Shown here piece after piece: positions 13,639 to 45,692 of a stretch of 48,445 nucleotides of DNA (position 1 is the first letter of the stretch; the number at the start of each line of letters is the position of its first letter). The notes beneath the pieces are model-generated. The model saw only the letters and a list, made by a program, of their open reading frames with translations, ran no database searches and was not told the origin of the DNA. Source of the DNA: Oscillospiraceae bacterium (GTDB lineage Bacteria > Bacillota > Clostridia > Oscillospirales > Oscillospiraceae); contig JAFQFP010000012.1 of assembly GCA_017398625.1 (NCBI GenBank), forward strand, positions 1-48,445, in the 5' to 3' direction. Both the position numbers and the translations under genes were made by a program.

Positions 13639-13674
13639 GACTAAGACAATTCCATAGCCTTTGCGTGGCAGACG

Positions 13675-13890
13675 GAGCGCCGGGCTTCGCCTGCTGAACA
13701 AGATAACCGGGTGAGAATCCCGGACGGTACCGCCGCTGTATGCGTTGACGGTGCTCCCTTTCGGCGAAAGCCGGTCACTGGATCTTTCCGGGAAGGCAGG
13801 GAGCGCTCCCGGGTCGCAGCCCCGGGTAAAACGCAAGTCAGAAGACCTACGCGAAGCGTCTCCTCCCCCTGCGTGTTTACAGGGAGGTGC
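13675..13890 (+). ncRNA. Cobalamin (B12) riboswitch
   Basis: The conserved core is recognisable in order: AACCGGGTGAGAATCCCGG (about 13705-13723), CCGCTGTA (13733-13740), GTCACTG (13774-13780), GGGAAGGC (13790-13797) and AAGTCAGAAGACCT (13835-13848). The last two are the near-invariant B12-box region of RF00174-type riboswitches. A further hairpin (CCTCCCC...CAGGGAGG, about 13862-13887), whose loop could form the kissing contact, precedes a strong terminator hairpin. Ligand binding would be expected to terminate transcription ahead of the DUF4430-ECF genes. Confidence 0.93.
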
Positions 13891-33720: not shown

Positions 33721-34722
33721 ATGGACAACAATGTGCGTCCGGAATCCATGACCCGTATCACCACTCTTGCGCAGGCAAGCGCGTTTATTGAGGAGCAGGT
33801 CGCCCTCGTCCGCCAACAGGTAGGCGATAAGAAGGTGCTGCTGGCTCTGTCCGGCGGTGTAGATTCTTCCGTAGTCGCCGCACTGCTGATCAAGGCCATC
33901 GGCAAGCAGCTTGTCTGCGTTCATGTGAATCACGGTCTGATGCGCAAAGGCGAAAGCGAGCAGGTCATTGAGGTATTTGGCAAGGCGCTGGATGCCAATC
34001 TGGTCTATGTGGATGCCACCGACCGGTTCCTGAACCTGCTGGCAGGTGTCTCCGACCCCGAGCGCAAGCGCAAGATCATCGGCGCTGAGTTTATCAAGGT
34101 GTTTGATGAAGAGGCCGCTAAGCTGGACGGCATTTCTTTCCTTGCACAGGGCACCATCTACCCCGACATTCTGGAGAGCATCAAGGCAAAGGAAAGCGGC
34201 AAGCCCGTCAAGTCCCACCACAATGTGGGCGGTCTGCCCGAGGATATGGCAATGGAGCTGGTGGAGCCGGTGAAGCTGCTGTACAAGGACGAAGTCCGCA
34301 TCGTCGGCGAGGCTCTGGGTCTGCCCCACGGCATGGTCTACCGTCAGCCCTTCCCCGGTCCCGGTCTGGGCGTGCGCTGCTTGGGTGCCATCACCCGTGA
34401 CCGTCTCCATGCCCTGCGGGAAGCCGATGCCATCCTGCGGGAGGAATTTGACAACAGCGGTCTTGCCGGTAAGGTCTGGCAGTACTTCATCGCTGTGCCC
34501 GATCTCAAGAGCGTCGGTGTCAAGGACGGCCTGCGCTACGAGGGCTGGCCCGCCATCATCCGCGCAGTGAACACCACCGATGCCATGACCGCCACCATCG
34601 AGGAGATCCCCTATTCCCTGCTGCACCATATCACTAACCGCATCACCCACGAGGTCGAGGGCATCAACCGCGTCCTGCTGGATCTGACGCCCAAGCCCAT
34701 CGGCACGATTGAGTGGGAATAA
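33721..34722 (+). CDS. guaA: GMP synthase ATP-pyrophosphatase subunit (no glutaminase domain)
   Basis: 333-residue protein equal to the C-terminal two thirds of GuaA, which aminates XMP to GMP. The PP-loop VLLALSGGVDSSVVAALL (about residues 38-55), VHVNHGLMRKGE, AQGTIYPDILES, KSHHNVGGLPE, the dimerisation domain with RQPFPGPGLGVRCLG, and the terminal GTIEWE are all intact. The N-terminal class-I glutamine amidotransferase domain (about 190 residues in usual GuaA) is absent. The gene has its own promoter and GGGAGG site, so it is not a visible truncation. It could use ammonia or a separate glutaminase subunit. The 3' end is a known integration target. Confidence 0.93.
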   Translation: MDNNVRPESMTRITTLAQASAFIEEQVALVRQQVGDKKVLLALSGGVDSSVVAALLIKAIGKQLVCVHVNHGLMRKGESEQVIEVFGKALDANLVYVDATDRFLNLLAGVSDPERKRKIIGAEFIKVFDEEAAKLDGISFLAQGTIYPDILESIKAKESGKPVKSHHNVGGLPEDMAMELVEPVKLLYKDEVRIVGEALGLPHGMVYRQPFPGPGLGVRCLGAITRDRLHALREADAILREEFDNSGLAGKVWQYFIAVPDLKSVGVKDGLRYEGWPAIIRAVNTTDAMTATIEEIPYSLLHHITNRITHEVEGINRVLLDLTPKPIGTIEWE

Positions 34723-35571: not shown

Positions 35572-36297
35572 CTACACGTTAGGTGAAGTCTCACGTGTAT
35601 ATATTACATCGCCCATAAAAATCGGTTTGCCATCAGAGGCAAGGCAATGCCAAAATTTTCCAACCATTTTATTTGGTTTCTGATTCGGCATCAGCCCACT
35701 TCTATCAATAGTCATTTGTTCATAACCCCGCCTGGACTCTGGATAGCCTTGCCGCTGCAATTCCGCAGTGTATTCAACCATGTAAAAAATCCTTATTGCC
35801 CCCCGATCATCCCAATCAGCAAGTAATGAATACCATATAAATTTTTCTCCAATAGACGATCTGACCTCAATTGTTTTGCACGTTTGCTTAAAGATAACTG
35901 GAGACGGAATCTTTGTGTCCTTCAACTCTGTCCATCCATTGCTATCGAGACGTTTTGAATATGTAGTTGTGTCGCTCCATTCTCCATCAATGTCATACTG
36001 TGGGTACTTCTTCTTCCATCCTTTTTCGTTAACATATTTTAAAACAAAAAAGTAGATGCCAGCTGTTATAGAAGTGGGTGCCAAAAAATCAAAGAATAAG
36101 GTCAGAAAATATCCAACAAATTGCTCCTCCAGCTTAAGAAAACCAGCAATATGAGACACCACTAAGTTTTTGCACTCCAGATAAAATGCGTTGGAATTTA
36201 GGAAATAACCAATTGCGATTAATACCACCCAAATACCTAAGCAGAGCTTAAACGCGGTCCCTTTCCACTTGTTATAGTAATCCGCCAACTCTCTCAT
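35572..36297 (-). CDS. Two-TM, beta-rich membrane protein (Cap15/S-2TMbeta-like effector candidate)
   Basis: 241 residues. Two N-terminal transmembrane helices (about 17-36, FKLCLGIWVVLIAIGYFLN, and 60-87, including FLTLFFDFLAPTSITAGIYF) precede a cytosolic region of alternating beta strands (about 98-241): IDGEWSDTTTY, PVIFKQTCKTIEVRSSIG, IRIFYMVEYTAELQ, a YEQMTIDR strand and KPIFMGDVIYTRE. Two TM helices plus a small beta barrel is the plan of Cap15, a CBASS effector that senses cyclic nucleotides and disrupts the membrane. No CD-NTase is present. GGGAGG ten bases before the start; overlaps the SDR gene by 26 bases. The similarity is inferred from architecture only. Confidence 0.6.
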   Translation of the reverse strand: MRELADYYNKWKGTAFKLCLGIWVVLIAIGYFLNSNAFYLECKNLVVSHIAGFLKLEEQFVGYFLTLFFDFLAPTSITAGIYFFVLKYVNEKGWKKKYPQYDIDGEWSDTTTYSKRLDSNGWTELKDTKIPSPVIFKQTCKTIEVRSSIGEKFIWYSLLADWDDRGAIRIFYMVEYTAELQRQGYPESRRGYEQMTIDRSGLMPNQKPNKMVGKFWHCLASDGKPIFMGDVIYTRETSPNV

Positions 36298-37030
36298 CTT
36301 GATTTGCCTCCCATATTATATTTCGCTCATAGTACCCTTTGTGGTAAAATGAATCGCTATACTTGAATAAGCTTATCACATTTCCATTAACCAAAGGAGA
36401 GAGATTTTCTATTGTCTGCTCAACAGTTTCTGACAACTCGCTTAATGTAGGATAGTTTTTATGAAATGCTTCTGGCTTTGTTTCAAGGACATTATTGGTC
36501 TTAATAGATGGCAACGCAAAGGCATTCGCTGTTATGTTGTATTTTGATTGTTCGTTTGCAACACATTTAATTAAACATTCAACCGCAGCTTTGGACGATG
36601 TAAACGCAGCCATATCCGGGTAATTATATCTTACCGAATTGCAGCTAAAAGCAATGATTCTTCCGCCACCAACCGCCTGCATGATAGGAACTACGGCCTT
36701 AACAACGCCAAAAAGGGTAACATAGTGGCTTTGTATTTGCGAAACAACTTCGTCAAAGCTTGTATTTGTTACAGATTTATGCGCCCAAAAATCTCCCACA
36801 CTGTGTATCAGGGTAAATGGTGTGGAAAAGCACTTCCTAATGTATTCTCTCAGACGAAGAAGATCACATTCTTTTGTCAGGTCTACTCCATCTATCCACT
36901 TGACCGTAGAGTCAGCGACAGATTTTGCAGAACGCGATACAAGCAGTACTTCGTGGTTTTTAGCCAAAAGAAACTGAGCCAGAGCTCTGCCAATTTCCGA
37001 ATTTGCTCCTGTTATAACATAATTACTCAT
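36272..37030 (-). CDS. SDR-family NAD(P)-binding protein with Tyr-to-Phe active site
   Basis: 252-residue short-chain dehydrogenase/reductase fold. The N-terminal dinucleotide motif TGANSEIG lies at residues 7-14, followed by VSRSAK and DGVDLT, LIHSVGDFW at the usual NNAG position, and IIAFSCNSVRYNYPDMAAFT then SSKAAVECL. In the catalytic YxxxK the Tyr is Phe (Phe143, Lys147), so normal hydride-transfer chemistry is unlikely. The Rossmann part appears complete, so it may bind NAD(P)(H) without turnover. AAGGAGG precedes the start; it follows the helicase by 122 bases and overlaps the two-TM gene. Its place in a SIR2-containing cassette suggests a nucleotide-sensing role (inference). Confidence 0.8.
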   Translation of the reverse strand: MSNYVITGANSEIGRALAQFLLAKNHEVLLVSRSAKSVADSTVKWIDGVDLTKECDLLRLREYIRKCFSTPFTLIHSVGDFWAHKSVTNTSFDEVVSQIQSHYVTLFGVVKAVVPIMQAVGGGRIIAFSCNSVRYNYPDMAAFTSSKAAVECLIKCVANEQSKYNITANAFALPSIKTNNVLETKPEAFHKNYPTLSELSETVEQTIENLSPLVNGNVISLFKYSDSFYHKGYYERNIIWEANQDERVGGLL

Positions 37031-37152
37031 TTTGATACCTCCTTAATCTTTTGTTTGATACACAAGCATCGCGGTTTGTTTGCTCTTGTATGCTTATCAC
37101 GCATTCATTTGAAATGAAACCAAGCAATTCTCCTTTCTACACCCATGAGAAG

Positions 37153-39627
37153 TTATTGCCCAACAGGGTTCGTTGCATACGCTTTAAAGAACAACTCCGG
37201 TGTGAACTGATAATATGCCAACATCTGCGACAGCTCCTTAACATTTTTAAATGTACCATTGGAAGCGACAGCAGTACAGAAGTCCCGTACTTTCTGTTTA
37301 AGCAATGCCAGCCTTTCGGCATCAATAACTCTAAAATCTTCTGCAGGCGAGGCATGGAAATCAAAACAACAAGATGGGTGTACTATCACAGGAATACACC
37401 GACAATCGGGCGGATAGTTTTTTCGAAACCAGCTAACCGATGACAACAGCTGCCCGCAGTATTCTTTGCTAATCTTCTCGGCTGTTGCCTCATTTTTACA
37501 TTCAATTACGGCGTACTGCATCCCTTCCATATGCCACAACACATCCGGACCAACACCGTATTCATCATCTGGCTGTGTAGCCTCCATGCCCAATAACACT
37601 GCCAGCTTTTTCATTGCCGCCTCGAATCGCTTATATGAGGAAGGCGCAAATACAAGAGCGTCAATTGCTGCATTTAAATCAATGAGGTACTCATTTACGT
37701 CCTTTTCACTGTACTTTTCAATAATTTGCTGTGCCTGCGGCTTTATCTTGTTCAATTCGCTCCTACGTTTAGCCCCAGCGATGGGTTTTATAATATAGTG
37801 GTTATATGTTTGCGCGGCAGCTAAAACACGTTGCGCCTCCGTCGGGTCAATAAAATAGCTGTATTTCGCTTGCTCAAGCATAATATACCCTTTCAAGATA
37901 CCTTCCTGTGTTTGATTCGCAAGCGTTCTCAGTGTATTCCTTGCACTTTCTGCTTGTCCGCGCAGCGCAGCCTGGTTAAATGCGATTCTACAGACCAGAG
38001 CAAACGCATCAACCCTAAGTTCTCTGTCATATGCAAGGTTGCTTAATGCGCCACGGCTTAATTGCGTCCAGCCGGTATCCTGGGTCACGCAGTAATCTAA
38101 AACACCAAAAATTTCTTCAAGGCTCTTGCCCATCAGGTCTTGCGCAAGATAGCTAGATACTTCATTTTGCTTTTTTGTGGCCGGGCTGAAATTGGAGCAC
38201 GCATTTTGGGAAAATAGAACCTGTACCAGAGCAGAACCCATAATGATTACACCGCAATAATCATTTGTTGAGCGTACGCCTCGCCCCATGCCCTGCTCAA
38301 TCTTTTGTATTTTTTCCTTCTGCCCGCTGATGGTTCCTTGCAAGCAGTGTTCTTTTATTTTGTCGTAAGCTGTTCGCGCATCTGGCAAACCATCCAAAAC
38401 GATTATTCTGCAAGCATCATCGGGTAGATCTATACCGTCATATTTGTTTACCAGCACATACAGCCCTGACTTTTGTGATCGCATTTTATCAATGCCCTCT
38501 TTAATATTAATGGCAGTGTAGATATCATTCGTTACATCTTGCCAAAAACGCGCCCGAAAGTTGGATGGGACAATCACAACAACATTATAGTCCTTAGCGT
38601 ATTCATATAGCTTGTACTTTATTTCCAAATCGCTGATGCCAGGTGTATACGCTTGCGGACAGAGAATCATTCTGTCTCCGATATCTGCAGCAAGCTTAGG
38701 TGTTATTACCGTTGTCTTAGGATCAACATCAAAAACAGACACCAGCTGGCTGTCATCACACAGCGTTGCGCTCATAAATACGCGGCGCTTAGCATTGGCA
38801 AACGCAGAGATTTTATGTATTGGAACAGCATATGGTTCTATTTCAATTGACTTATAGGAGAAAACGCAGTTGCAATACTGCAGAATATCCGAAATTAGAG
38901 GATAGTTAAACATAATCTTTTTGTCTTCTTTATGCTGGTGTATGATCTGGAGCAAGTCACTTTTTGTTTCTGCAATTCGCCAAAAAGGGACTGCCATACA
39001 TACACTTGCAGCATCTCCTTCGCAAATATCTAAGTATCCCTTTTCGTTTTGATTGCGAAGGTCATCTTTATACAGGTTGAATATCTCGTTCCCCAATTCG
39101 CTATCCATGTCAATCTTCATAGAAAACTGAGACTTTACGTCATCAACACAAGCGTGAACATCATCGATCAGAATGTAATCCAATGCTACATTGCCAGTAT
39201 TGCGCATCCCAAAAACAGACTTTCCATTAAAGAGTTTCTGAATATTGATGACCAGAATCGCCTCGCCACGAATAAACGACAGATCTTTTTCTGAGGTCGC
39301 AACAGATATTCCAAGGTCATTTGCTTCTGCAATCACCTGATCTACCAAATAATTATCCGGAACAACATATGCCGCCATCCCTCCATTTTCTGCCATGCAG
39401 CTTTTCAGGATAAGCAATGCAACTGTCGTCTTTCCGCTACCGGTATTCATCTTGATTATAGTATCCTTGCTGCTGCGGTTCTCGAACCACTGCTCCAGAA
39501 CTTCTGCCTGCACACTACGCAAATATGCGTATTTTGCACTTTTAGCAGGCAACGTCATAAATATGTCCACAGGATTAATTATTGCCGCTCCATTGATTCT
39601 TGCACTAAGCTTCCCAAAATCTATCAT
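37153..39627 (-). CDS. SF2 helicase with C-terminal PD-(D/E)XK-like nuclease domain
   Basis: 824 residues. Helicase core: Walker A KMNTGSGKTT (about 59-68), box II DDVH (155-158) in place of DEAH, SATL (286-289), GIDLPDDACR (398-407, XPD/DinG-like) and motif VI EQGMGRGVRS (444-453). A helical region follows (about 500-670). Near the end GPDVLW (Asp695), then AVIECKNE (Glu709, Lys711) has the D...ExK spacing of restriction-endonuclease-like nucleases, with a following conserved YCGQLLSSVSWF helix. ATG 39627 is preferred to a GTG 11 codons upstream. No methylase is present. Probably the nucleic-acid-sensing or cutting part of a defence cassette (inference). Confidence 0.8.
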   Translation of the reverse strand: MIDFGKLSARINGAAIINPVDIFMTLPAKSAKYAYLRSVQAEVLEQWFENRSSKDTIIKMNTGSGKTTVALLILKSCMAENGGMAAYVVPDNYLVDQVIAEANDLGISVATSEKDLSFIRGEAILVINIQKLFNGKSVFGMRNTGNVALDYILIDDVHACVDDVKSQFSMKIDMDSELGNEIFNLYKDDLRNQNEKGYLDICEGDAASVCMAVPFWRIAETKSDLLQIIHQHKEDKKIMFNYPLISDILQYCNCVFSYKSIEIEPYAVPIHKISAFANAKRRVFMSATLCDDSQLVSVFDVDPKTTVITPKLAADIGDRMILCPQAYTPGISDLEIKYKLYEYAKDYNVVVIVPSNFRARFWQDVTNDIYTAINIKEGIDKMRSQKSGLYVLVNKYDGIDLPDDACRIIVLDGLPDARTAYDKIKEHCLQGTISGQKEKIQKIEQGMGRGVRSTNDYCGVIIMGSALVQVLFSQNACSNFSPATKKQNEVSSYLAQDLMGKSLEEIFGVLDYCVTQDTGWTQLSRGALSNLAYDRELRVDAFALVCRIAFNQAALRGQAESARNTLRTLANQTQEGILKGYIMLEQAKYSYFIDPTEAQRVLAAAQTYNHYIIKPIAGAKRRSELNKIKPQAQQIIEKYSEKDVNEYLIDLNAAIDALVFAPSSYKRFEAAMKKLAVLLGMEATQPDDEYGVGPDVLWHMEGMQYAVIECKNEATAEKISKEYCGQLLSSVSWFRKNYPPDCRCIPVIVHPSCCFDFHASPAEDFRVIDAERLALLKQKVRDFCTAVASNGTFKNVKELSQMLAYYQFTPELFFKAYATNPVGQ

Positions 39628-39681
39628 TAAACCAGTTTCCTTTCTTTTTATTTTGTGCACATTCTAATTTTTCGTGCGAAA

Positions 39682-40017
39682 CTACTTTACAATGATTCGC
39701 TCTCCGCATTTACAAGGAGCATTAAGGCACAGCACAGCTGCGAGCGGATCAATGTTATATTCCGTCGCGATAATATGCGCGTCCACCATAACAGCAAGAA
39801 ACCATGCATCCTCATTTTCTTTTTCGGGAATCTTTTTTCTCCTGTTGCTATCACATTCCTCGAACAGCCGCTTTATCCTCTTTCTGTCCGCAGCATTAAG
39901 ACTATTAAACTGTTGTAATGCTGTACTGAACGGACACAGGCTTTTCGAAAATGCATTCGCTATAGCAAACCACTTTTCTGCATTGGCCTTACTCAGAAAA
40001 ACAATTCTATTTTTCAT
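39682..40017 (-). CDS. Hypothetical 111-residue protein of the defence cassette
   Basis: Not recognised. Starts MKNRIVFLSKANAEKWFAIA, is mostly helical with a charged middle (FEECDSNRRKKIPEKENED), and ends with a small cysteine knuckle (NAPCKCGERIIVK). ATG 40017 overlaps the end of the SIR2-like gene by 11 bases and has TGGAGGG upstream, so it is translationally coupled to it. The helicase starts 54 bases further on. Small proteins in such positions can be adaptors or inhibitors of the toxic component, but nothing in the sequence decides this. Confidence 0.75.
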   Translation of the reverse strand: MKNRIVFLSKANAEKWFAIANAFSKSLCPFSTALQQFNSLNAADRKRIKRLFEECDSNRRKKIPEKENEDAWFLAVMVDAHIIATEYNIDPLAAVLCLNAPCKCGERIIVK

Positions 40018-41140
40018 ACATGTCCCTCCAGAATTCCTTTGCAGACCGGAATTCAATCTTGTTCTCTTGGCATAATCTTGGAAGCAGCTCCTTCACCCTG
40101 TCACATTGATCTGCTGAAAAAAAGTAATAAACACAATGCGTGATTGGGGTAGTATTAATGGCTTCAAAAATATGAAAGTCATTCCATGGTGAGAGTCCCA
40201 GGATTTCCAATTCCCCCGTTATGGCACGCAGTTCATCAAAGTGATAGTTTTCTGAAAAGCGCAGTTCCGGATGCGAAGCTTTCAATTGAATTGCGTATCC
40301 CGTATTTGCCAGCAGTATATTTTCTTCACTCGTCCAGGCGTCAATTTGTGCCCTTATTGCAGGATTTGTAGAATATGCTACCGCCATTTTCTCAATGGTT
40401 GCGTTTGCTTGCGGACTCTGGTTAACTTGGAATTCCTTGTAAGCTCCGCAATGTGTGGTTAATGCATTAGAATACAAATACCAATAGTTTTCATCAATTG
40501 GGTTTGTTCGCACCGGGCAGTCCGGCAGTTGGTTTCTGAATGAATTCTCATCGTACACATCAGCCAGTTTATCAAATTGGCCATGAATATGCAGAACATC
40601 AGAACTCACAACGGAATCTATATTTGAATCGTAGTTCGTTGTGAATATAGAGTCAAAACTATTCAGGTATGAAGTGAATCTAGCCGGGTATTGCGTGTAA
40701 AGCGTATTGATTTTTCCTTCATTATAGATAGCAAGGAGATATGCAATACGCATTGCTTCCCGGGAATAGAATTGATCTGGATTCCCCATGTTATATTTGT
40801 GGCATACAAGATCATGGATCAGATAGTAATCCTCAAAACCTATATCAGTAATCCGCAGCGTATTTATTCTGCTGCCGTATTGTTCCTTGAACGCTTTTAA
40901 GGAGTCTCGTTCCGCAGCACAATTTGCTATGGTATCATAGTGGCCCTGGATAATTTCACGAGCCTGCAAATACAGCTGTCCTATGTAAATTTTTAAAAGA
41001 TATGGTTCATTAACAATAATGTGCGCCGGAAAATCATCTCGGTCGCAGTTTTTTAATATTCGCAGCACAATCTGCTGTGTGGTGTTACTTTTATCATCAA
41101 ATTGAATGTTAATGCCGTTGCCTACAAGTAACTGTTTCAC
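40007..41140 (-). CDS. SIR2/AbiH-like protein, candidate NAD-consuming effector
   Basis: 377 residues. The N terminus QLLVGNGINIQF (Gly-Asn-Gly at 7-9) corresponds to the nucleotide-binding loop of SIR2-like and AbiH-like proteins. IFTTNYDSNIDSV (165-177) is the typical TTNYD block, and VLHIHGQFD (182-190) holds the His-Gly expected at the catalytic site. A mixed C-terminal region ends with FSADQCDRVKELLPRLC. SIR2 domains in defence systems (ThsA, DSR and others) hydrolyse NAD+ on infection. Family limits with AbiH and DUF4917 are blurred. GTG start at 41140 with AGGAGAG upstream; first gene of the five-gene cassette. Confidence 0.75.
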   Translation of the reverse strand: MKQLLVGNGINIQFDDKSNTTQQIVLRILKNCDRDDFPAHIIVNEPYLLKIYIGQLYLQAREIIQGHYDTIANCAAERDSLKAFKEQYGSRINTLRITDIGFEDYYLIHDLVCHKYNMGNPDQFYSREAMRIAYLLAIYNEGKINTLYTQYPARFTSYLNSFDSIFTTNYDSNIDSVVSSDVLHIHGQFDKLADVYDENSFRNQLPDCPVRTNPIDENYWYLYSNALTTHCGAYKEFQVNQSPQANATIEKMAVAYSTNPAIRAQIDAWTSEENILLANTGYAIQLKASHPELRFSENYHFDELRAITGELEILGLSPWNDFHIFEAINTTPITHCVYYFFSADQCDRVKELLPRLCQENKIEFRSAKEFWRDMYEK

Positions 41141-41192: not shown

Positions 41193-41218
41193 TTCCTTGT
41201 GTGGAAATATTTGTACAA

Positions 41219-41250
41219 AAGCACCCGGTTTTAAACACCGAGTGCTTTTT
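41219..41250. terminator. Terminator-like hairpin upstream of the defence cassette
   Basis: The stem AGCACCCGGT/ACCGAGTGCT (one mismatch, arms 41220-41229 and 41237-41246) has T on the right and A on the left. It insulates the cassette from the Rhs region to its right, whose transcription runs the same way. Confidence 0.7.
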
Positions 41251-42835: not shown

Positions 42836-43777
42836 CTACTGAATTGCAACATTTGCAATTTCGGTTTGTGCTCCCACAAATAGCCCTCCAGAAAATGAAG
42901 TAAATCTAGTTGTAAAGGCAGTATCTTTTGCAACAGGGATCTTGGTTCCAAAATAAGTGCCAACTCCTGCAACCACACCGGTGGTTAAGCCATCAGCGAT
43001 TTTTTGCGATATAGGTCCTTCAGTATTGGTTGCGGTTATTACTCCGGATAGTACTCCCACGCCTACAGAAGCAACCACAGCAACAGTTCCCCCAACGGCA
43101 CCACCAACTGCGCCAAGGGCCCCAGTAACTGCACCAGTTGTGGCAGCACCAAACAGACCAGAGGCAGTGACATCCTCTCCATTAATACCACAGCTGACAA
43201 GATGGGATACCGCACCAATTATTGCACCTGCAATTGCTCCACCGATTGCAGCACCTACAACAATCTCCCAAAATCCACCACTTTCATCCTTTCTGCTTAC
43301 TGGATTATTTCCGCAGTATGCAAAAAGGTTCAGACTGGTAAAATCACCATTTGCGCCCAGCAAAGAGGGATCGTCCGCATTGATGAAACGGCAGATGGTA
43401 GGATCGTAATAACGGCTGGCTACATAATAGAACTCAGTCTCGGTATCGTAGACATATCCACGGTAGCGGAGGGGGTTATGTCTGCCGAGGGTGGAGTCAA
43501 GGGTGCCGGTGCCGTTATTGCCGGAGGTGTGGCTGCCCCATGCGTCGTAGATGTAGGAAACGACGGTTGTGCCTGTGCTGTCCAGAATAGCGGTGATGTC
43601 ACCTTGGAGATTGGTGGCGTAGTAATAGGTAGTGCCGTTGTAGGTGACGGTTTGGGGTGTGCCGGACGCGTCGTAGGTGAAATACAGGGTGTTGCCGTTT
43701 ACATCGGTGACGGTGATCTGGTTATGATCGTATTGAAAGGTCAGCTTGCCGCCGAGATCGGTAACGCCGCTGTGCGG
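42836..43777 (-). pseudogene. Orphan Rhs module 3: core end plus glycine-zipper tip, no start codon
   Basis: Open from just after a TAG (43778-43780) for 313 codons. It begins in the Rhs core (LGGKLTFQYDHNQITVTDVN, then GNTLYFTYDASGTPQTVTYN, then HNPLRYRGYVYDTE and RYYDPTICRFINAD), matching the main Rhs gene at 46.6-47.0 kb. After FAYCGNNPV it diverges into a Gly/Ala/Val-rich tip (VGAAIGGAIAGAIIGAVSHL and GAVTGALGAVGGAVGGTVAV), like membrane-inserting glycine-zipper toxins. The first possible start is TTG at 43363, after the core. So the module is probably silent unless recombined into the main gene. Confidence 0.7.
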
Positions 43778-44649: not shown

Positions 44650-45692
44650 TCCGACCACCCCTCTCGAACCGCAAAAAATATAGGACCATTAGCATCGTGA
44701 TAATAGAGTCCATTTAGAGCAAAAACTACTTGTCCATTTACCATGCCTGCTGGAAGCCAATAAGTGTTATTTACATATTTTTCGTCTTTGTAACAACCTC
44801 GAAAATTTGGATCATTGCCGGATTTATTAAACCAACCGTTTTCGTCCAATCTGATAAAGTGGTAATCATATTCACCGCACATTAGTGCAACTTTATACCA
44901 ACCGTCCTCCACAGGAGAATCGATAGATTCAAGTCTAACGCAGTTTTTACTCCCTCCTAGATCTTCTTGGACCGCACGAAATGTTTCCTCCGTACTATCC
45001 CCCTGTTGATATCCTGTCGGATCAGCATCAATCTGTTTTTTAATTGCATTTCCATAACAGTTATATGATTCACTGGATGCGGTAGAAATATCAAGATCGG
45101 GCGCAGCGGAAAGCTCGCCATTGGGAGCAGGAGATTCACATCCACCAAGAACAAGAGGTAGAATAATCATGGGTATAATCAAGGGCCACCAAGCAGTACC
45201 TCTTGGATCTGCATTGTTAACTGGATTATTCCCACAATACGCAAACATATTATTGCCCAGCAGACCCTGCCCAGTTGCCATGTAGTCATCCGCATTGATA
45301 AACCTACCCATCTCCGGGTTGTAATAGCGGCTTTGGAGGTAATAGAGCCCAGTCTCGGTGTCGTAGACATATCCGCGGTAACGGAGGGGGTTGTGCCGTC
45401 CCAGTGTAGATGCAAGGGTGCCGGTGCCGTTGCTGGTTGAGGTGTGGTTGCCCCATGCGTCGTAGGTGTAGGAAACGACGGTTGTGCCTGTGCTGTCCAG
45501 AATAGCGGTGATGTCGCCTTGGAGATTGGTTGCGTAGTAATAGGTAGTGCCGTTGTAGGTGACGGTTTGGGGTGTTCCGCTGGCATCGTAGGTGAAATAC
45601 AGGGTGTTGCCGTTTACATCGGTTACGGTGGTCTGGTTATAATCGTATTGGAAGGTCAGCTTGCCGCCGAGATCGGTAACGCCGCTGTGCGG
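44646..45692 (-). pseudogene. Orphan Rhs module 2: core end plus papain-like tip, no start codon
   Basis: Open from just after a TAG (45693-45695) for 348 codons. The first 127 codons contain no ATG, GTG or TTG and encode the Rhs core end (LGGKLTFQYDYNQTTVTDVN, TYYYATNLQGDITAILDSTG, LYYLQSRYYNPEMGRFINAD). After FAYCGNNPVNNADPRGTAWW comes a hydrophobic segment (LIIPMIILPLVLGG), a spacer, then a domain with YNCYGNAI, DYHFIRLDENGWFNKSGNDP and YWLPAGMVNG. The Cys...His...Asn/Asp order suggests a papain/NlpC-like cysteine peptidase fold (inference). It stops in the GTGA overlap with the lipoprotein gene. Confidence 0.7.

What the first reader, a model, noticed from the sequence alone, without database searches (positions are those of the whole stretch)
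35572..41140. Five-gene putative defence cassette: SIR2/AbiH-like, small protein, helicase-nuclease, SDR pseudoenzyme, two-TM beta-rich protein
Seen: five minus-strand genes, with overlaps of 11 and 26 bases at two junctions and gaps of 54 and 122 bases at the others, in AT-rich DNA between core guaA and an Rhs locus. Known: SIR2-like NADases, SF2 helicases with PD-(D/E)XK nucleases, and Cap15-type two-TM effectors each occur in anti-phage systems. Inference: their combination in one unit, with an SDR protein, does not match any system I can name (it is not Thoeris, DSR, Hachiman or standard CBASS). A plausible logic is that the helicase-nuclease senses or attacks foreign DNA while SIR2 and the membrane protein are abortive effectors.
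Basis: partly seen in the sequence, partly recalled or inferred. Interest (0 to 1): 0.92.

Follow-up and report, generated by a model that had tools for sequence, protein, structure and literature searches.

The report
Three stacked phage-defence modules
The five genes look like three separate anti-phage units side by side (one already known, called Hna, and two unnamed gene pairs) and not one five-part machine; the two pairs are worth testing.

Summary
The five minus-strand genes are real and placed as described. They do not behave as one conserved unit; they separate into three modules. (1) The helicase-nuclease is Hna, a known single-gene abortive-infection system (E 3.9e-113 to the solved Hna; nuclease residues P, D, E, K kept). 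(2) The SIR2/AbiH-like gene and the small gene are a two-gene unit: the small ORF sits at the 3' end of the SIR2-like gene in 19 of 73 distinct retrieved relatives, mostly with the same 11-nt overlap, and in one it is fused to it. None of these relatives has Hna or the two-TM gene within the stretch held. (3) The overlapping SDR and two-TM genes recur as a pair in one other genome, with neither Hna nor SIR2-like gene within 19 kb; both SDRs have lost the catalytic Ser and Tyr. The SIR2 call rests on motifs invariant in 43 of 43 rows; profile support is weak and a PDB profile search found no SIR2. Verdict: a small defence island in AT-rich DNA with one known system and two unnamed candidate pairs. 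A single five-gene system is not supported.

The parts
40007..41140 (-). SIR2/AbiH-like protein, 377 aa, GTG start; module 1, candidate NADase effector
   Evidence: Motifs G7-N8-G9, N169-Y170, H186-G187 and G315..P318-x-N320-D321 invariant in 43 of 43 aligned relatives; weak PADLOC PDC-S21 4.4e-6 and SIR2 0.026; 73 distinct relatives
39682..40017 (-). Small partner protein, 111 aa from ATG at 40017 (ORF opens at 40056); module 1
   Evidence: Homologue at the 3' end of the SIR2-like gene in 19 of 73 distinct relatives; same ATG offset (-10) as in 13 of 18 relatives checked; no Pfam, PADLOC or NCBIfam family
37153..39627 (-). Hna-type helicase-nuclease, 824 aa from ATG (ORF opens at 39660); module 2
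   Evidence: PADLOC PDC-S28 1.6e-286; solved Hna 10uj/9yhn/9ykj E 3.9e-113; P705 D706 E720 K722 (numbering of the 835-aa ORF) match Hna P712 D713 E727 K729
36272..37030 (-). SDR-fold protein with altered active site (S to C, Y to F, Lys kept), 252 aa; module 3
   Evidence: PF00106 1.7e-20; ortholog 55-56% identical in G860 with the same substitutions; register from alignment to 2et6
35572..36297 (-). Two-TM protein with a soluble C-terminal part, 241 aa; module 3, candidate membrane effector
   Evidence: Two hydrophobic segments about 15-33 and 60-89, two also in the G860 homologue; homologue 32-38% identical, by method, next to the SDR in G860
41213..41250 (-). Terminator-like hairpin between the upstream DNA and the SIR2-like gene
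   Evidence: Seen by eye; fold -20.1 kcal/mol against -6.3 in shuffles, z -5.6

Best explanation
A small acquired defence island with three stacked modules. [quoted passage not shown] inferred for this one from kept motifs. Module 1 is a SIR2/AbiH-like effector with an obligate 111-aa partner, co-translated by an 11-nt overlap. I infer that the two form a complex in which the partner controls (holds off, or relays a phage signal to) an NAD-consuming enzyme, so that infection ends in NAD depletion. Module 3 is a pseudo-SDR overlapping a two-TM protein. I infer that the pseudo-SDR binds a nucleotide (NAD(P) or a derivative) without catalysis and controls a membrane-damaging effector, as a nucleotide controls OptE in Panoptes. 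Shown here: the genes, the Hna identity, the recurrence of both pairs, invariant SIR2 motifs, the lost SDR catalytic residues. Inferred: all activities of modules 1 and 3, and that they act against phages.
For: Hna; Hna-like proteins cover at least 80% of the query in 187 of 257 matching plasmid records out of 72,556, and in the 14 other Hna loci I opened no neighbour resembles the other four proteins. Module 1: small ORF in 19 of 73 distinct SIR2-like loci, clustered on the tree (2 changes against 13.2 in shuffles, 0 of 500 as low), pairwise distances of the two proteins correlated (r 0.91 over 16 pairs, 0 of 5000 permutations; r 0.64 over the 11 closest, 1 of 5000), a fusion in L099, kin on (pro)phage records. 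Restriction-modification and other PADLOC families among 140 neighbouring ORFs. Module 3: pair in G860 without the rest; S to C and Y to F in both SDRs.
Against: No activity was or could be tested. A profile of the SIR2-like family found no SIR2 structure in the PDB at E up to 10, Pfam gave the window protein no SIR2 or AbiH match, and profile comparison with four SIR2_2 proteins reached only 25% probability, over 19 columns. The two-TM protein matched no Cap15-type family or structure, and average beta propensity of its soluble part is no higher than that of the other proteins. Module 3 rests on one other genome. No small-protein family is known, so its role is a guess. The five genes could still be co-transcribed and act additively.
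Confidence: 0.72

Rival explanations
1. One five-gene defence system: SIR2-like protein, small protein, Hna-type helicase-nuclease, SDR and two-TM protein act together, with the helicase-nuclease as sensor and the others as effectors.
For: Five genes on one strand, two overlaps, gaps of 54 and 122 nt, shared low GC; no strong terminator listed between them on that strand.
Against: 0 of 74 SIR2-like loci have Hna or the two-TM gene in the stretch held; 14 of 14 other Hna loci lack the other four; the SDR pair stands alone in G860; Hna is reported to work as a single gene.
Confidence: 0.07
2. Module 1 is a toxin-antitoxin pair first and a defence system second: the small protein is an antitoxin that must be present wherever the SIR2-like toxin is intact.
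For: In L069 and L092 the SIR2-like gene is broken (frame break; transposase insertion) while the small gene is intact; the small gene lies downstream with a fixed overlap; the fused copy in L099 also has a broken SIR2-like part.
Against: Only two or three decayed loci, too few to weigh; most SIR2-like relatives (54 of 73 distinct) have no such small gene, so the SIR2-like fold as such does not need one; L129, near this clade, has none.
Confidence: 0.25
3. The SIR2-like protein is not an NADase but another nucleotide-binding or nucleic-acid enzyme that shares only short motifs with SIR2.
For: No significant Pfam or PDB match; weak profile comparison.
Against: Four SIR2-type motifs in the SIR2 order, with N169 and H186 in 43 of 43 relatives; 39 of 43 relatives hit PDC-S21 at E up to 0.01, best 1.3e-12; the TTNYD segment aligns in register with SIR2_2 at E 7.7e-4 against 0.079-0.92 in 20 column shuffles. 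What PDC-S21 itself does is not known to me.
Confidence: 0.2
4. The SDR/two-TM pair is a metabolic or envelope operon unrelated to defence that happens to lie beside defence genes.
For: In G860 the pair sits among what look by eye like housekeeping genes (recR- and rpe-like ORFs), and no defence function is shown.
Against: The SDR has lost Ser and Tyr in both copies, which does not suit a metabolic dehydrogenase; the pair is rare: no match for the SDR at E 1e-14 in 390 other class genomes, and 1 of 11 other genomes in the genus of G860's set has it, namely none besides G860, as expected of an accessory gene.
Confidence: 0.35

Closest known systems
Hna (helicase-nuclease abortive infection), Sinorhizobium meliloti; PADLOC PDC-S28
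   Same: SF2 helicase plus C-terminal PD-(D/E)XK nuclease; alignment over residues 12-773; nuclease P, D, E, K and the helicase motifs kept
   Different: About 30-39% identical to most relatives found; dimer-loop residues T30, D31, P34 named in the paper are not evidently kept in the alignment; activity untested
SIR2 NADase effectors of abortive-infection systems (DSR, Thoeris ThsA, SIR2-HerA; recalled) and AbiH (recalled); PADLOC PDC-S21
   Same: GxG-type start, TTNYD, H-x-H-G and G-x-S..D-type motifs in order
   Different: No significant match of the window protein to SIR2, SIR2_2 or AbiH profiles; a dedicated 111-aa overlapping partner that I found in no library
Panoptes (OptS/OptE; mCpol and 2TM-beta)
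   Same: Two-gene layout with a nucleotide-handling protein and a two-TM protein; passages read describe OptE as held off by a nucleotide
   Different: The partner is an SDR-fold protein, not a cyclase; the two-TM protein is not recognised as S-2TM-beta by any search made
CBASS with Cap15 effector
   Same: Two TM segments followed by a soluble C-terminal part
   Different: No CD-NTase (SMODS) match in the genome at E up to 0.01 (genome 69% complete); no sequence match to Cap15

Membership tests
Hna | Full-length similarity to characterised Hna | tested here: met
   phmmer E 3.9e-113, query residues 12-773; PDC-S28 1.6e-286
Hna | SF2 motifs and PD-(D/E)XK residues P712, D713, E727, K729 | tested here: met
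   P705 D706 E720 K722 in the window ORF; Walker A TGxGKT, PD and E-x-K in 11 of 11 aligned rows
Hna | Acts as a single gene | tested here: met
   By gene context only: 14 of 14 other Hna loci opened lack relatives of the four neighbours (eight began with 1.5 kb flanks, six of these widened)
Hna | 3'-5' ssDNA exonuclease triggered by phage SSB | not testable with these tools
   needs biochemistry
SIR2/AbiH-type NADase | Conserved motifs with catalytic Asn and His | tested here: met
   N169 and H186 in 43 of 43 relatives; the catalytic role of these positions is recalled
SIR2/AbiH-type NADase | Significant match to a curated SIR2 or AbiH profile or SIR2 structure | tested here: not met
   Window protein: no Pfam family at E up to 1, PADLOC SIR2 0.026; homologues 0.012-0.043; no SIR2 in PDB profile search
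SIR2/AbiH-type NADase | Profile-profile similarity to SIR2_2 | tested here: inconclusive
   25% probability, E 7.7e-4, 19 columns; shuffles 0.079-0.92
SIR2/AbiH-type NADase | SIR2 fold | not testable with these tools
SDR dehydrogenase (active enzyme) | SDR fold profile | tested here: met
   PF00106 1.7e-20
SDR dehydrogenase (active enzyme) | Catalytic Ser-Tyr-Lys | tested here: not met
   Cys, Phe, Lys in the window protein and in the G860 ortholog
S-2TM-beta / Cap15 / OptE | Two N-terminal TM segments | tested here: met
   hydropathy, window and G860
S-2TM-beta / Cap15 / OptE | Beta-barrel nucleotide-binding domain | tested here: inconclusive
   mean beta propensity 0.99 against alpha 0.99, uninformative; fold not testable
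S-2TM-beta / Cap15 / OptE | Match to a family profile or structure | tested here: not met
   Pfam, PADLOC, PDB
CBASS or Panoptes | CD-NTase or mCpol synthase beside the two-TM gene | tested here: not met
   Neighbour is an SDR; SMODS absent from the genome at E up to 0.01; mCpol was not searched genome-wide

The most novel reading that the evidence does not exclude
The SDR/two-TM pair is a guard of the NAD(P) pool: a catalytically dead SDR senses an NAD(P) nucleotide and keeps a membrane-lysing partner quiet, releasing it when phage or a neighbouring NADase depletes the nucleotide; beside a SIR2-like NADase it would be a second-line trigger, a Panoptes-like logic with a metabolic cofactor in place of a cyclic nucleotide.
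Probability: 0.1. Interest if true: 0.85.

Novelty: new variant of a known kind. Interest (0 to 1): 0.45.

Why it matters
If right, the locus removes one supposed five-part system from the list and puts two compact, testable pairs in its place. A SIR2-like effector with an obligate overlapping partner would show how such an effector is held in check or triggered. A dead dehydrogenase paired with a membrane protein would be an unusual sensor-effector layout.

Tried and rejected
Single five-gene system: rejected on gene context. CBASS/Cap15 membership: failed sequence tests, fold untested. Single-protein scans for Hna relatives in genome contigs and viral contigs found nothing, because the patterns are too specific; the same query found 257 plasmid records by tblastn. 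PADLOC family PDLC04986 hit 106 of 391 class genomes, but only 8 (own included) are long matches (E at or below 6.9e-78); the rest are short helicase matches and were dropped. Two further tm2 'matches' in the order search (E 0.001 and 0.0096, short, stops inside) were dropped. One viral match for the two-TM alignment (L169) lies in a 298-aa phage ORF of another kind and was dropped as chance. Three SDR matches near SIR2-like genes (L077, L104, L123) keep Y-x-x-x-K and were dropped as ordinary SDRs. In one search, 34 of 300 family genomes match at E 1e-8, but besides the own genome only G860 matches in both halves of the query; the other 32 match the SDR half at 34% identity or less. Two phylum genomes with weak SDR matches were not opened. 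A4 left out the broken SIR2-like copies and also the intact L066 and some others: 42 of the 73 distinct relatives plus the window protein are in it. PADLOC tally of 140 neighbour ORFs has no background control and lists 25 of 178 families. Chou-Fasman averages do not tell alpha from beta here (values recalled). Empty-site comparison with same-genus genomes gave nothing: the guaA-like gene alone is shared, and the nearest copy lies by a contig end. Pairs of paper searches for PDC-S21 and for SDR with Cap15 returned no paper; a wider SDR search returned 8 papers, none holding 'short-chain dehydrogenase'; subscription journals and preprints are mostly outside that library.
Full report
Observation. 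The window (contig C23 of a 1.35 Mb, 69% complete genome in 57 contigs) has the five ORFs at the stated places with the stated junctions. From homologues the likely starts are ATG 39627 for the helicase and ATG 40017 for the small protein. The DNA is AT-rich against its surroundings. An 11-of-12 promoter-like site lies at 41535-41507 on the minus strand, but promoter-like sites are not enriched over shuffles (18 against 21.9), and a strong terminator-like hairpin lies between it and the SIR2-like gene (41250-41213, -20.1 kcal/mol, z -5.6); the transcription start is therefore unknown.

Module 2, the helicase-nuclease. It matches PADLOC PDC-S28 over residues 12-831 at 1.6e-286 and the solved Hna (10uj, 9yhn, 9ykj) at 3.9e-113. 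The paper with these structures (PMC13381803; abstract, introduction, one results section and found passages read) describes Hna as a single-effector abortive-infection system and 3'-5' ssDNA exonuclease, and names P712, D713, E727 and K729; the window ORF has P705, D706, E720 and K722. Hna-like proteins are frequent on plasmids: 257 of 72,556 records match and in 187 one place covers at least 80% of the query. Long matches occur in 8 of 391 class genomes, own included. I opened 14 other Hna loci (7 annotated records; 7 genomes, six of them widened): none has a relative of the SIR2-like, small or two-TM protein; the one SDR hit is to the helicase ORF itself at E 0.003.

Module 1, the SIR2-like and small proteins. 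The window protein has no Pfam match at E up to 1 and weak PADLOC matches (PDC-S21 4.4e-6, SIR2 0.026). In the order, 5 of 344 other genomes carry a relative. An alignment search gave 66 genome loci and 8 viral-contig loci; L128 repeats part of L069, so 73 are distinct. The small ORF was found by phmmer in 19 of 74 loci (18 distinct), and clustering of downstream ORFs adds L079: 19 distinct in all. In 13 of 18 relatives checked, as in the window, its ATG lies at offset -10 from the end of the SIR2-like stop. In L099 the small domain continues in one ORF after the last SIR2-like motif, in a gene whose earlier part is broken. On a tree of 43 SIR2-like proteins the 16 with the small partner fall in one supported set of 17, the exception being viral L129; the label needs 2 changes against 13.2 in shuffles. 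Distances of the two proteins correlate (r 0.91, 16 pairs; r 0.64 for the 11 closest); shared descent alone would give this too, so it shows joint inheritance and not contact. Other relatives stand without it, in Bacteroidota, Pseudomonadota, Planctomycetota, Chloroflexota and one archaeal MAG among others. None of the 74 loci has Hna or the two-TM protein by phmmer at E 0.01, in stretches of 3.2 to 13.1 kb. One relative lies on a Terrisporobacter phage.

Is it SIR2? For: G7-N8-G9, N169-Y170, H186-G187, G315, P318, N320 and D321 are the same in 43 of 43 rows, in the order of the motifs of four SIR2_2 proteins fetched for comparison; 39 of 43 rows hit PDC-S21 at E up to 0.01. Against: PDB profile search finds no SIR2 at E up to 10, and profile comparison gives 25% probability over 19 columns, though E 7.7e-4 is far below 20 shuffles and two unrelated alignments. 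I hold SIR2-like at about 0.8.

How module 1 may work. The fixed overlap, the joint inheritance and the fusion argue that the two proteins work together. Two copies (L069; L092 with a transposase ORF, PF01609 1.1e-20) have a broken SIR2-like gene and an intact small gene, and L076 is cut short with no small gene in the stretch held; this suits a costly effector with a regulator but is too few to prove it. Two loci, L063 and L076, have a related 782-788-aa ORF upstream, in L063 with NB-ARC (1.7e-4) and TPR matches. Methylases, restriction enzymes and mads-type proteins are among 140 neighbouring ORFs of 19 loci (no control).

Module 3, the SDR and two-TM proteins. A joined query over 300 family genomes found both in one other genome, G860: SDR 55.7% over 246 residues, two-TM 32% over 224. 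The genes overlap there too, by 17 nt at the ORF starts or 8 nt from the first ATG. Neither Hna nor the SIR2-like gene lies in the 19 kb taken. The SDR has Cys and Phe in place of the catalytic Ser and Tyr, keeps Lys, and has TG(A/G)NSEIG in place of TGxxxGxG in both (the canonical residues are recalled and read against 2et6). The SDR has no match at 1e-14 in 390 other class genomes nor in 11 others of G860's genus; viral and plasmid searches gave no close relative, and the two-TM protein none in plasmids, phages or the order. Cap15-type identity is not supported by sequence. Panoptes (PMC12657218 and PMC12657230; found passages only) shows that a two-TM beta-barrel protein can be held off by a nucleotide from its partner gene; that is the model I borrow, as inference.

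Verdict. One known system and two unnamed pairs in one island. I expect the modules to work separately; additive or shared regulation is not excluded.

Noticed in passing
window 33721-34722 (+): guaA-like ORF of 333 aa with ATP-pyrophosphatase and GMP_synt_C parts only; same-genus genome G486 has an 86% identical copy and also a full-length relative (open frame 529 aa, 54%); only this copy was found in the 69% complete own genome.
   Followed up: partly
window 13646-13868 (+): Cobalamin riboswitch, 65.9 bits.
   Followed up: no
window 43371-43670 and 45286-45585: 300-nt direct repeat, 84% identical, in the Rhs-side region; perhaps repeated Rhs cassettes.
   Followed up: no
L096, L097, L102, L107: Longer SIR2-like relatives (about 460-490 aa) follow a 1148-1525-aa ORF; the one scanned (L096) is an Eco57I-type methylase.
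   Followed up: partly
L063 and L076, upstream of the SIR2-like gene: Related 782-788-aa ORFs; in L063 NB-ARC/TPR matches, that is STAND-like.
   Followed up: partly
L065 7557-8159 (+): Short ORF matching ADPrib_exo_Tox (PF03496, 8.9e-11) just after the SIR2-like/small pair in a gut Clostridia MAG.
   Followed up: no
L036 (Enterococcus hirae plasmid) and L035 (Rhizobium plasmid): Hna genes lie beside TIR-domain or RES-domain genes and recombinases, a sign of defence islands.
   Followed up: no
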